Of a DNA stretch of 56,522 bases, positions 8,312-12,507 are shown piece after piece; positions within the stretch are counted from its first letter, which is position 1, and the number at the start of each line of letters is the position of its first letter. Below the pieces are notes generated by a model, which was not told the DNA's origin, did not search any database, and saw nothing but the letters and a program-made list of their open reading frames with translations. Source of the stretch: Gammaproteobacteria bacterium (GTDB lineage: Bacteria; Pseudomonadota; Gammaproteobacteria; Nitrosococcales; Methylophagaceae); NCBI GenBank assembly GCA_029210875.1, contig JARGFJ010000013.1:1-56522 (forward strand). The letters run 5' to 3'. The translations under genes and the position numbers were made by a program.

Positions 8312-8719
8312 ATGCGTGAAGCAACAAGATTACAGTGGTCATTGTTATCGCTAAGAGTGAGCGTTTTTATCGTGATGTTGATGTGGACCCTGGATAAATT
8401 GATCCAGCCAGAACACAGCACTAAGGTCTTTGAAACGTTTTATGGCCTGGCAGGGCTGGGCAGTACGATTTTCATGATTATCGGTCTGATAGAGTTATTG
8501 CTCATTCTGGCCTTTGTTGCCGGTGTGTATAAACGGTTCACTTATGGGGTCGTTCTGCTTATCCATGGTGTTTCGACTTTTTCTTCATTCCAGCAATATC
8601 TGGATCCATTTAATAATCTGTTATTTTTTGCTGCATGGCCGATGTTGGCAGCCTGCGTTAGCCTTTACCTGTTACGTGATGATGATACGTTATTTGCTTA
8701 TAAACAGACGCTAGACTGA
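8312..8719 (+). CDS. Small four-helix membrane protein (DoxX/MauE-like)
   Basis: A 135-residue protein with about four hydrophobic helices and an early WTLDKLIQPEHS motif reminiscent of the DoxX/MauE superfamily. The start is the ATG downstream of a strong AGGAGGG; an in-frame ATG 15 bases earlier would put that ribosome binding site inside the gene. It is the last gene of the pst-arsenosugar run, 22 bases after the previous stop, and faces the anti-sigma gene. Function unknown. Confidence 0.7.
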   Translation: MREATRLQWSLLSLRVSVFIVMLMWTLDKLIQPEHSTKVFETFYGLAGLGSTIFMIIGLIELLLILAFVAGVYKRFTYGVVLLIHGVSTFSSFQQYLDPFNNLLFFAAWPMLAACVSLYLLRDDDTLFAYKQTLD

Positions 8720-8748
8720 TATTGCCATTACAAGGTTATTTATTCAGG

Positions 8749-8994
8749 TTAACTATGTTGGTCTTTTGACAAAATTTTATCGGCTATGTCATCCAGTTCT
8801 TGGTTTGAGTATTCTTGAACCGGCATTTTTTTGATGACAACGATGGTCTGGCGTAGCTGTTTGATAAACAAGCGACAATTGCTGCACATCAAGGTGTGCA
8901 TCAACACACCGGCTTTAGTTGACATGCTGCAATCACCATCAATAAATTGACTGGCTTGGTCATGAATATCTTTACAGGAAAACATGAATTTCAT
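8749..8994 (-). CDS. Putative zinc-finger anti-sigma factor
   Basis: An 81-residue soluble protein with the HxxxCxxC arrangement of zinc-finger anti-sigma (ZAS/zf-HC2) domains (HTLMCSNC around residues 33-40) and an earlier Cys/His pair near the N-terminus. It overlaps the ECF sigma gene by four bases, the usual sigma/anti-sigma arrangement. No transmembrane helix is visible, so it would be a cytoplasmic, possibly redox- or metal-sensing, anti-sigma factor (inference). Confidence 0.75.
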   Translation of the reverse strand: MKFMFSCKDIHDQASQFIDGDCSMSTKAGVLMHTLMCSNCRLFIKQLRQTIVVIKKMPVQEYSNQELDDIADKILSKDQHS

Positions 8995-9587
8995 AATGGA
9001 TTCTGGTGCTCATCAATAACTTTTTTAATAGCGAGTCGTGCCCGATGTAGCAAAACTCGTACATTGGACTGACTTACTTCGATGATGTTACAAATTTCAG
9101 TAAAATCCATACCTTCAATATCATGTAATACTAGGGCAAGTCTTTGGTTATCGGGTAGTTTTTCTATTTGAGCGTTGATGCTTTCCTGCAATTCATCACT
9201 TGATAGCAAGGCTTCTGGAGAGTCCTCATGCCAAGGTTGTTGTGGTGATGACCAGCTGCCGTTAGCTTTAAAAGTATCGACATCAGGATTTTGCCAGTTC
9301 AAATCCAGTGAGCTATGCCGTGCCTCGCGCAGTCTTCTCGTTTTGGCTTTATTAATAACAATTTGTGTCAGCCAGGTTTGCAGGCTCGAACGTTGTTGAA
9401 ACCCCGTTATTGATGATAGAACCGTTTCCCAGGCATCTTGAACAATTTCTTCGGCAAAAGCATCACCAACAATCGATTTCGCAACAAAAACCAGCTTGGT
9501 ATGATAACGCCTGACAATCAAGCGGAATGCTTCACGGTCACCTGCTTGCAGTTTTTCAATAAGTGATATTTCGTTAACAGTTGTCAT
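8991..9587 (-). CDS. ECF-family RNA polymerase sigma factor
   Basis: Sigma-70 family, extracytoplasmic-function type. Region 2 (RRYHTKLVFVAKSIVGDAF... EIVQDAWETV) and region 4 (LPDNQRLALVLHDIEGMDFTEIC... VRVLLHRAR) are clear, joined by a Ser/Pro-containing linker. I start at the ATG giving 198 residues; a TTG 48 bases earlier is possible but adds no conserved sequence. It is co-translated with its probable anti-sigma factor. The regulon is unknown; the convergent arsenosugar operon is a neighbour, not a demonstrated target. Confidence 0.85.
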   Translation of the reverse strand: MTTVNEISLIEKLQAGDREAFRLIVRRYHTKLVFVAKSIVGDAFAEEIVQDAWETVLSSITGFQQRSSLQTWLTQIVINKAKTRRLREARHSSLDLNWQNPDVDTFKANGSWSSPQQPWHEDSPEALLSSDELQESINAQIEKLPDNQRLALVLHDIEGMDFTEICNIIEVSQSNVRVLLHRARLAIKKVIDEHQNPL

Positions 9588-9689
9588 GGTTGCGTTGATT
9601 AAGTGGTTTTTATCTAATGAGAGTTTTGTTATCAACTATGGCGTCGAGTATAACGAAAAGTCATGCGTAGTTTCCATAAACTTTTCTGG

Positions 9690-10303
9690 GACAAGTGATT
9701 CAGCCCTTCAGTTTGCGGTAACCAATCTACTACGGCCTCGGCTGGCTTCGGTGTCTTCATCCTGATACTTCACAGCATCAGTAGCCTTGGGCAGAGAGTC
9801 CCAGAGCTCACGGGGTAATGTGCGTGATCTTCACACTTATACCTGCCACATTTACGTCCATAGCTTCCGTGTAAGTATTGGGCTTTGACAATACTGGCTG
9901 CCTCACCCGTTATGACGCCTCCGAGGCACTACATGGAACGATGCGATAGCGAGTAAGTAGTGCAGTTATTACATCCTCGCCCCGTCAGTCGTTTGAGAGC
10001 CAAAGTGACAGCGAGGTGACGAGGACGGCGGAGGCAAATGGTCGTCAACGCACGGAGTGGAATTAAGTCATGGATGACTTAATTCTTTCGCGAGTACGGT
10101 GACTCGCTGGGTATGCGATTTCTGTTCGTCAGGCCAGTGTTTTGCTTTCCGTTTTCTTCAGATTTCACCTCACGGTCAACACCCTTGCTTGCGGTTCAGC
10201 TAGTGATTCCTGTTAAAGGCTCACAGAGAACTTTCACTTTCGGTCAGCACCGCCTAGATCGAAACAGTGCCCGTCAAGACGCTACGTGCCATGCTCGGCG
10301 CAC
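9690..10303 (-). mobile_element. Group II intron remnant, 5' RNA domains without reverse transcriptase
   Basis: Read on the minus strand, the segment opens with GTGCGCCGAGCATGGC, matching the GTGYG 5' end of bacterial group II introns. It continues with stretches I recognise from the 5' ribozyme domains of such introns in marine gammaproteobacteria (GACCGTGAGGTGAAATCTG, GGCCTGACGAACAG and the later TTACACGGAAGCTATGG and AACTGAAGGGCTGAAT). The similarity stops about where an intron-encoded protein would begin. No reverse transcriptase frame and no domain V hairpin (GAGC...GTTC) are present. The 5' end lies 29 bases after the glnN stop, behind a GCGGCTTTTTT terminator-like run. The short frames here are not real genes. 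Recognition is from memory of the family, not from a computed fold. Confidence 0.6.
10060..10085. repeat. Perfect 12-bp inverted repeat inside the intron remnant
   Basis: GAATTAAGTCAT is followed after two bases by its exact complement. It would form a long hairpin with a two-base loop in the transcript, and its AT-rich composition contrasts with the GC-richer surroundings. It could be a stem of the intron RNA or a later small insertion. Confidence 0.8.
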
Positions 10304-10332
10304 TATAAAAAAAGCCGCTAAAACAATACGGT

Positions 10333-12507
10333 TTATTTAATAAACAACATTTCACGGTATTTAGGCAATGGCCATAAGTCATCAGCCACTTCACCTTCTA
10401 ACGTATCAACATGTGAACGAACTTTATCCATCAAGCCACGAATGTCGTTAGCACAGAAGTTCATGTGTGCTTCGATTGAATCGAAGTCATGTTTTGCAAT
10501 CACTTTTTCAAGCTCAGCAACAGCTGCAACCATGGCATTTGTTTCTGTTGCGATAGACGTCGGAATAGAGTTATCCATTTCAACACCTAAATCAGCCATG
10601 CTTGCGTTTGTCATTGCAAGATCAGCTAGACAATGTGTTGATGCTGGGTATATCAAGGTTTTAGCCATTTCGATAACTAATTTAGCTTCAACTTCGATCG
10701 ATAAGATGTATTGCTCTGCATACACTTCAAAACGACTTTCAAGCTCAACATTTGATAGAACTCCAGTGTTTGCGAATAAATCTTTAATGGAGTCTTCACG
10801 AAAGAACGGCAGTGCATCGGCTGTTGTTGGCAGGTTTAATAAACCACGTTCTTCAACCGCTATTCTATGCCATTCAGCCGAGTAGCCGTCACCACCAAAT
10901 ATAACATTGCCATGTAATTCCATTAATTGTTTAAGCACTGCAAGTACAGCAGTTGCTTGATCATTGCCTTTTGCAAGTTCAACTTCAAGTGCGTCAGCAA
11001 CCCAGTTTAATGAATCAGCTAACATGGTGTTCATGGCAACTAATGGACCAGATACAGATTGTGATGAACCAACCGCTCGGAATTCAAAACGGTTACCTGT
11101 AAACGCAAATGGAGAAGTACGGTTACGATCACCAGGATCACGCTCAAATTTAAGAATTTGAGCTAAACCAAGATCCATTTCGCCACCTTTTTCAGATGTC
11201 GCAATTTTGCCATCTTTAATGTCTTGGAATACTTGTTCTAATTGTGAGCCAAGGTAGACAGATAAAATAGCAGGAGGTGCTTCATTTGCACCTAAACGGT
11301 GGTCATTTGATGCTGATGCAATAGTGGCACGCAATAAAGGACCGTATTTATGAACACCACGAATAACGGCACCACAGAACAACAGGAAGTTAAGGTTGTC
11401 ATGCGGTGTGCTACCGGGATCGAGCAAGTTGCCTTGAGTGGCATTACCTACAGACCAGTTAACGTGTTTACCTGAACCATTGATGCCAGCAAATGGTTTT
11501 TCATGTAGTAATAACATGAAGCCATGTTTTTTCGCTGTAGCCTTCATCAAAGTCATCATCAATTGTTGATGATCAGCAGCAATGTTAGCTGCTTCATAGT
11601 AAGGCGCAATTTCAAACTGACCTGGTGCGACTTCATTGTGATGTGTTTTAGCAGGAATACCCAGGCGGTATAGTTGATCTTCGAGATCTTGCATGAACAC
11701 TTGGACGCGAGCAGGGATTGCACCAAAATAGTGATCATCAAATTGTTGGCCTTTAGCAGGTGATGCACCAAAAAGGGTACGGCCGGCTAATAATAAGTCT
11801 GGACGTGCATTAGCAAAGTTAGAGTCAACAAGGAAATATTCTTGTTCAGCACCACAGCTAGCATTTAATGGGGCAATTTCAGTTTCGCCCATCAGTGTAA
11901 GTACACGACGACCTGCTTTATCCATCGCTGCATTTGAACGCAATAATGGAATTTTCTTATCTAAGGCTTCACCAGTCCAGGACATGAACACACTTGGGAT
12001 CATTAACGTTGAACCGTTTTCAGTGTGCATAATGAATGCTGGGCTAGTTGGATCCCAGGCAGTATAACCACGCGCTGCATTGGTCATACGTAAACTACCG
12101 TTAGGGAATGAGGACCCATCCGGTTCGCCTTTAATTAACAGGCTGCCAGAGAATTCTGTGATGGCATTACCTTCAGAATTAGTAATAATAAAACCGTCGT
12201 GTTTTTCGGCAGTAATATTGGTCATTGGGTAGAAAATATGTGAAAAGAATTTAACGCCTTTAGACATCGCCCAATCTTTCATTGCCGCAGCAACAACCTC
12301 AGCATGAACGACATCTAAAGGAGCACCTGTTTGCACCGTTTGTTTTACTGCCTTGAATGCGCTTTTAGCAAGTGACTCTTCCATTTTTGCAAGATTGAAG
12401 ACATCGGTTGCCCAGATTTTTGACAAAGGCTCAGGTGCTGCGACTGACGTCGTTTTGCGATTAGTTATGTGAGAAATCGCCTGGAAGCGAGATTCATTTC
12501 CACTCAT
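10333..12507 (-). CDS. glnN: Glutamine synthetase type III (GSIII)
   Basis: ATP-dependent ligation of ammonia to glutamate. At 724 residues it is the long GSIII class, unrelated in length to GlnA (about 470). Family features include VFSxxxM-like N-terminal text, DPTSPAFI, the catalytic-core segments KTHHNEVAPGQFE and NGSGKHVNWS, and FRAVGSSQS. The start has AGGAT seven bases upstream. It is monocistronic, with no PII or ntr genes next to it, but gltBD and glnK-amt lie further along the window. Its 3' end abuts the group II intron remnant. I see no sigma-54 promoter upstream. Confidence 0.92.
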   Translation of the reverse strand: MSGNESRFQAISHITNRKTTSVAAPEPLSKIWATDVFNLAKMEESLAKSAFKAVKQTVQTGAPLDVVHAEVVAAAMKDWAMSKGVKFFSHIFYPMTNITAEKHDGFIITNSEGNAITEFSGSLLIKGEPDGSSFPNGSLRMTNAARGYTAWDPTSPAFIMHTENGSTLMIPSVFMSWTGEALDKKIPLLRSNAAMDKAGRRVLTLMGETEIAPLNASCGAEQEYFLVDSNFANARPDLLLAGRTLFGASPAKGQQFDDHYFGAIPARVQVFMQDLEDQLYRLGIPAKTHHNEVAPGQFEIAPYYEAANIAADHQQLMMTLMKATAKKHGFMLLLHEKPFAGINGSGKHVNWSVGNATQGNLLDPGSTPHDNLNFLLFCGAVIRGVHKYGPLLRATIASASNDHRLGANEAPPAILSVYLGSQLEQVFQDIKDGKIATSEKGGEMDLGLAQILKFERDPGDRNRTSPFAFTGNRFEFRAVGSSQSVSGPLVAMNTMLADSLNWVADALEVELAKGNDQATAVLAVLKQLMELHGNVIFGGDGYSAEWHRIAVEERGLLNLPTTADALPFFREDSIKDLFANTGVLSNVELESRFEVYAEQYILSIEVEAKLVIEMAKTLIYPASTHCLADLAMTNASMADLGVEMDNSIPTSIATETNAMVAAVAELEKVIAKHDFDSIEAHMNFCANDIRGLMDKVRSHVDTLEGEVADDLWPLPKYREMLFIK

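What the first reader, a model, noticed from the sequence alone, without database searches (positions are those of the whole stretch)
9690..10303. RT-less group II intron remnant directly behind glnN
The segment begins with GTGCG on the minus strand, continues with recognisable group II intron text and ends where the reverse transcriptase would start. Domain V is absent. It lies just after a terminator-like run at the end of glnN, a known landing site for some intron classes. Either it is a dead fragment or it could be mobilised or spliced in trans by another copy.
Basis: partly seen in the sequence, partly recalled or inferred. Interest (0 to 1): 0.6.

Follow-up and report, generated by a model that had tools for sequence, protein, structure and literature searches.

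The report
Dead class C intron fragment
Behind the glnN gene of this Methylophaga-like bacterium lies the broken front end of a self-splicing mobile intron, itself split by a small repeated element, which is ordinary genomic debris and not a working or shared-parts intron.

Summary
On the minus strand, 10303-9699 is the 5' part (D1 to start of D4) of a bacterial class C (group IIC) intron: three Rfam group II matches pass their gathering scores, and the first 15 bases fit the published class C boundary consensus. RT, D5 and D6 are absent. About 189 bp in the middle (10110-9922) are not intron but a dispersed Methylophaga repeat (248 bp full length), inserted between two adjacent intron bases without target duplication. 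The draft genome shows no second copy and no group II RT. Its only other group II trace, a sub-threshold D5-D6 scrap on contig 37, belongs to another lineage (86% to a complete intron of a sister species), so it is not the missing half, and trans-splicing or trans-mobilisation has no partner. Position and orientation behind the glnN T-run fit class C targeting, but the hairpin there is weak and no clean empty site was found. Best reading: a dead, probably horizontally acquired class C fragment, a common kind of debris. The nested repeat family, for which I found no description, is the more interesting part, but modest.

The parts
10111..10303 (-). Class C group II intron, 5' piece, from GTGCGCCGAGCATGG to ...CGCATAC (part of domain I; domain assignment by alignment and recall)
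   Evidence: RF02001 model positions 1-66; 76% identity to the K. pneumoniae CP014295 intron; fits consensus GUNYGCCNRGCAUGG (PMC4028801)
9922..10110 (-). Nested copy of a dispersed repeat (internal-deletion form of a 248-bp element)
   Evidence: 92% to positions 1-164 and 98% to positions 206-248 of the full-length copy in G016; other own-genome places at C9 (complete) and C30 (right end only)
9699..9921 (-). Class C group II intron, second piece, GAGGCGTC... to ...GAAGGGCTGAA (to the start of D4)
   Evidence: RF02001 model positions 67-140 and RF01998 1-84; 71% to the K. pneumoniae intron (that comparison also held six non-intron bases, 9693-9698)
9588..9698 (-). Sequence after the truncation: leader of an ECF-type sigma factor ORF (listed start TTG 9635, first ATG 9587; name recalled), not intron
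   Evidence: no Rfam hit; no alignment to intron relatives beyond 9699; ORF
10304..10332 (-). glnN 3' flank: T-run and remains of a terminator, then the intron start
   Evidence: weak hairpin -3.4 kcal/mol; no terminator listed by the scan; a normal terminator follows glnN in G014

Best explanation
A class C group II intron entered this lineage, probably horizontally, and inserted in the usual orientation behind the glnN terminator (inferred from position and relatives). A deletion or rearrangement next to the ECF sigma gene removed the RT, D5 and D6 (absence shown, event inferred). At an unknown time a small Methylophaga-type repeat inserted into the intron between CATAC and GAGGCG without duplicating the target (shown by comparison with uninterrupted relatives). 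What remains lacks the catalytic D5, so it cannot splice or move by itself, and the draft genome offers no partner; it is an inert relic.
For: Rfam hits. Alignment with four relatives whose 5' part is uninterrupted at this spot; the break falls between RF02001 positions 66 and 67. The best PDB match of the K. pneumoniae IEP is the GsI-IIC RT (478.7 bits, against 141.0 for 6me0 and 131.7 for LtrA). One copy of the intron and no group II RT in the own genome; the one RVT_1 match has no group II RNA beside it. The only D5-like hit is below gathering score and of another lineage. The second intron piece is absent from the 62 other genomes of the order searched. Passages seen: most bacterial copies are truncated (PMC4424553; PMC4028801); fragments generally have no counterpart of the same intron in the genome (PMC3522654).
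Against: Loss of the 3' part at D4 is not the 5' truncation expected of incomplete reverse transcription (recalled), so a separate deletion must be assumed. No clean empty site: gene order behind glnN differs in the closest relative. The terminator hairpin is weak and not called by the scan. The genome is a 93-contig draft, so an unassembled copy or plasmid is not excluded. The first RF02001 hit runs on through model position 170 inside the repeat; I read that stretch as a forced alignment.
Confidence: 0.92

Rival explanations
1. Split intron: the 5' piece here and the D5-D6 piece on contig 37 are the two halves of one rearranged intron that could splice in trans.
For: C37:19063-19133 scores 39.1 bits with RF00029 (gathering 40) and ends GCTACCCGAT, one base off the class C 3' consensus CCUACYCGAU; both pieces lack the RT.
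Against: The C37 scrap is 86% identical to D5-D6 of a complete intron in G019 and 69 and 63% to those of Kp and Pc. The window pieces are 67.5-76% to Kp, Pc, g220 and g272, but to G019 the first is 61% and the second 30%, an alignment that had partly slid; BLAST finds only a 77-base match of the first piece and none of the second. The DNA around the scrap has no match to the DNA behind glnN in G014.
Confidence: 0.02
2. ORF-less but mobilisable intron served in trans by an IEP elsewhere.
For: ORF-less introns with a related IEP in the same genome are known (PMC4424553 passage).
Against: D5 and D6 are missing too, D1 is interrupted, and no group II RT was found in the assembly.
Confidence: 0.01
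3. The sequence is retained for a new role, for example as 3' UTR or terminator of glnN.
For: It lies on the glnN strand, and the ordinary terminator seems damaged.
Against: It carries an insertion; it was found in one species only, so conservation cannot be measured.
Confidence: 0.04

Closest known systems
Class C (group IIC) introns behind terminators, e.g. the intron of K. pneumoniae IncC plasmid CP014295.1
   Same: Start GTGCGCC.RGCATGG, D1-D4 sequence at 71-76%, position behind a T-run
   Different: That intron has an IEP of 468 aa, D5-D6 and an uninterrupted D1
Group II intron fragments of bacterial genomes (PMC3522654, passages seen)
   Same: Truncated, no full counterpart of the same intron found in the genome
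   Different: Here a small repeat is nested inside
Small non-autonomous mobile repeats of bacteria (MITE-like, RU, REP; PMC2229807 seen in the search listing only)
   Same: Non-coding, dispersed, hairpin-rich by folding, internal-deletion forms
   Different: No matching terminal inverted repeats at the tips and no target duplication in 9 copies; not found within the 9 Y1-transposase loci fetched

Membership tests
Class C (group IIC) intron | 5' boundary GUNYGCCNRGCAUGG | tested here: met
   GTGCGCCGAGCATGG at 10303-10289 (consensus from PMC4028801)
Class C (group IIC) intron | D1-D4 ribozyme sequence and structure | tested here: met
   RF02001 (twice, split by the repeat) and RF01998 above gathering; the four uninterrupted relatives score 128-147 and 62-69 bits
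Class C (group IIC) intron | Insertion behind an intrinsic terminator | tested here: inconclusive
   T-run present, hairpin only -3.4 kcal/mol, not called by the scan
Class C (group IIC) intron | Class C IEP inside D4 | tested here: not met
   no RT match in the window
Class C (group IIC) intron | Catalytic D5 and D6 ending CCUACYCGAU | tested here: not met
   no RF00029 hit; no CCTACYCGAT in the window. Hence filed as a remnant, not as an intron.
MITE (the nested repeat) | Terminal inverted repeats | tested here: not met
   ends CCAGCG and GTGCGTCG do not match as inverted repeats at the tips; about 10 imperfect subterminal pairs are predicted
MITE (the nested repeat) | Target site duplication | tested here: not met
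   9 copies with both flanks: mean shared length 0.67 against 0.65 for 72 mismatched pairs; with shifted ends 2.0 against 1.9
MITE (the nested repeat) | An autonomous partner with the same ends | tested here: inconclusive
   none seen or in 9 Y1-transposase loci; several copies end at contig ends, and only 13 of 26 candidates in G016 were scored

The most novel reading that the evidence does not exclude
The nested sequence belongs to an undescribed family of 248-bp, hairpin-rich mobile repeats of Methylophaga that insert without target duplication, perhaps as single strands moved by an unknown Y1-type or other transposase; the intron, through its uninterrupted relatives, gives the exact ends of an insertion.
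Probability: 0.45. Interest if true: 0.35.

Novelty: new member of a known kind. Interest (0 to 1): 0.17.

Why it matters
It settles a candidate for a trans-acting or split bacterial group II intron as an ordinary relic. It places class C intron debris, probably of horizontal origin, in a Methylophaga-like genome. It also fixes, through the intron relatives, the exact ends of one insertion of a repeat family for which I found no description.

Tried and rejected
Trans-splicing with contig 37: rejected by lineage comparison. Empty site behind glnN: the closest relative (G014, 93% over the last 300 aa of GlnN) has a terminator and different neighbours, so no clean comparison. Empty site from the ECF sigma side: the best homologue in the other genomes of the genus is 48% identical, so not pursued. 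RAYT/REP origin of the repeat: no copy in the 9 Y1-transposase loci of G000, G016 and G023, only chance hits at E 0.97 or more. Wider spread of the repeat: no match in plasmids or phages; no exact match of one core pattern in IMG/VR. Structure of the repeat: 2 of 49 predicted pairs have changes on both sides and the covariation term is unfavourable (+0.74), so no claim of RNA function. Promoters near the remnant: 2 weak matches where shuffles give 1.8. Print: no paper with both Methylophaga and 'group II intron'; one unrelated paper with Methylophaga and 'mite'; a broader search listed 15 of 2,126 papers, none of the 15 with the word Methylophaga; a search for fragmented or trans-splicing class C introns listed three papers, of which I had already seen passages of one.

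Full report
Observation. The minus strand of the window carries GTGCG at 10303, after 29 bases of glnN 3' flank. Rfam finds three group II matches above their gathering scores: RF02001 at 10179-10070, RF02001 again at 9924-9851, and RF01998 at 9784-9703. A search of 8500-10600 with an E-value limit of 1 gives the same three and no domain V.

Class. The first 15 bases GTGCGCCGAGCATGG fit the published class C boundary consensus GUNYGCCNRGCAUGG (PMC4028801, passages seen). The best-covering plasmid matches include introns of K. pneumoniae CP014295.1 (Kp) and Pectobacterium pDrgb6 (Pc). The 468-aa IEP of Kp matches the GsI-IIC RT best (478.7 bits); three further entries at 292-373 bits are group II or retron-type RTs that I recall as IIC, and then come 6me0 (141.0) and LtrA (131.7). 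The IEP of Pc aligns in two frames, so that copy may be damaged. Identity of the two window pieces to Kp, Pc, g220 (an intron in G220) and g272 (in G272) is 76/71, 73/67.5, 72/71 and 68.5/69% (the second piece there included six non-intron bases). Before GTGCG, three of these four (Kp, g272, g220) show a stem and T-run by eye; Pc follows the 3' end of another intron copy after six bases. A fifth class C intron, in G019 and of another lineage, has no such T-run directly before it. Review passages state that class C introns insert at intrinsic terminators, fewer at attC sites (PMC4424553; PMC3522654).

What is missing. Similarity to relatives ends at 9699 (CTGAA); in CP014295 the IEP starts 32 nt later. 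The Kp IEP has no match in the window beyond a hit at E 7.6. The 3' boundary CCTACYCGAT does not occur in the window. Beyond 9699 comes the leader of an ECF-type sigma factor ORF (name recalled).

The nested repeat. The RF02001 match breaks between model positions 66 and 67; the first hit then runs on into the repeat, which I read as a forced alignment. The DNA between, 10110-9922, recurs in the own genome at C9 (complete, 250 bp) and C30 (right end only), and in G016, with one near-complete copy and a right end in G023 and partial or weak hits in G030 and G010: in all, 5 of 57 genomes of the family, the own included. For G016 that call lists 13 places (a copy in two pieces counted once), but only 13 of its 26 candidates were scored; in G055, without a match, 13 of 16 were scored. 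By equal contig lengths G016 is Methylophaga sp. MAG LH_M6, and a pattern scan of the 84,980-species collection adds four places there, 17 together; LH_M6 gave 15 of its 16 stretches (records near the window may be left out of that scan). The genus of the window is inferred from this. The full element has 248 bp; the window copy is 59 bp shorter, the gap lying between two TGCACTA stretches. In Kp the intron reads CGCATACGAGGCG, here CGCATAC[repeat]GAGGCG, so no target base was duplicated. Nine copies with both flanks show no target duplication beyond mismatched controls; single copies share up to 3 bases, as do controls. It was not found in plasmids or phages, and its core pattern not in viral contigs.

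Partners in the genome. The window's assembly has 2.44 Mb in 93 contigs. The intron occurs once; its other DNA hits are to the repeat only. The one RVT_1 match has no group II RNA beside it. RF02001 occurs only here. RF00029 gives one sub-gathering hit at C37:19063-19133, with no IEP match in that locus. This scrap is 86% identical to D5-D6 of a complete class C intron in G019 (IEP 444 aa) and 69 and 63% to Kp and Pc. The first window piece is 61% to G019 and the second 30% (an alignment that had partly slid; BLAST gives one 77-base match and none). The two fragments are therefore of different introns. A 2015 review says that no trans-splicing introns had been reported in bacteria (PMC4424553).

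Distribution. The second intron piece has no match in the 62 other genomes of the order and matches 2 of 368 other genomes drawn from the class, where at most two candidates per genome were scored. It has none in phages and is in 4 of 5426 E. coli genomes, all on plasmids, at 71-77%. The whole segment matches 300 plasmid records; none covers 80% of it, as expected if the repeat is foreign. Horizontal arrival is thus likely but not shown by a donor.

Site. Behind glnN of G014 lies an ordinary terminator, -16.2 kcal/mol, and no intron; in the window the stem is -3.4 kcal/mol, with the left arm apparently missing, and the terminator scan lists none there. Neighbouring genes differ, so the insertion site is inferred only.

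Verdict. A truncated and interrupted class C intron remnant without D5, so it should not splice (inferred). Such fragments are common and generally without a counterpart of the same intron (PMC3522654, passages). The nested repeat is the less ordinary part, and its mover remains unknown.

Noticed in passing
L006 2702-4168 and 4165-4740 (own genome, contig 21): A 488-aa reverse transcriptase beside a nucleoside deoxyribosyltransferase-like ORF, retron-like by recall; a near-perfect palindrome at L006 3710-3793 lies inside the RT frame.
   Followed up: no
L091 and L089 (G019 contig 93): A complete class C intron with a 444-aa IEP in another species of the genus; its 5' flank holds a long imperfect palindrome (by eye) that may be an attC-like site, and an IS91-like transposase lies beside it (names recalled).
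   Followed up: partly
L009 1501-1571 (own genome, contig 37): Detached D5-D6 of another class C lineage, just below the Rfam gathering score, downstream of a recJ-like gene (name recalled).
   Followed up: yes
L008 2483-2522 and G023:C28:20332-20374: Solitary right ends (about 40 bp) of the repeat, suggesting that this part can occur alone.
   Followed up: no
L036 150-240 (Pectobacterium pDrgb6): The 3' end of one class C intron copy followed, after six bases, by the 5' end of another copy: a tandem arrangement.
   Followed up: no
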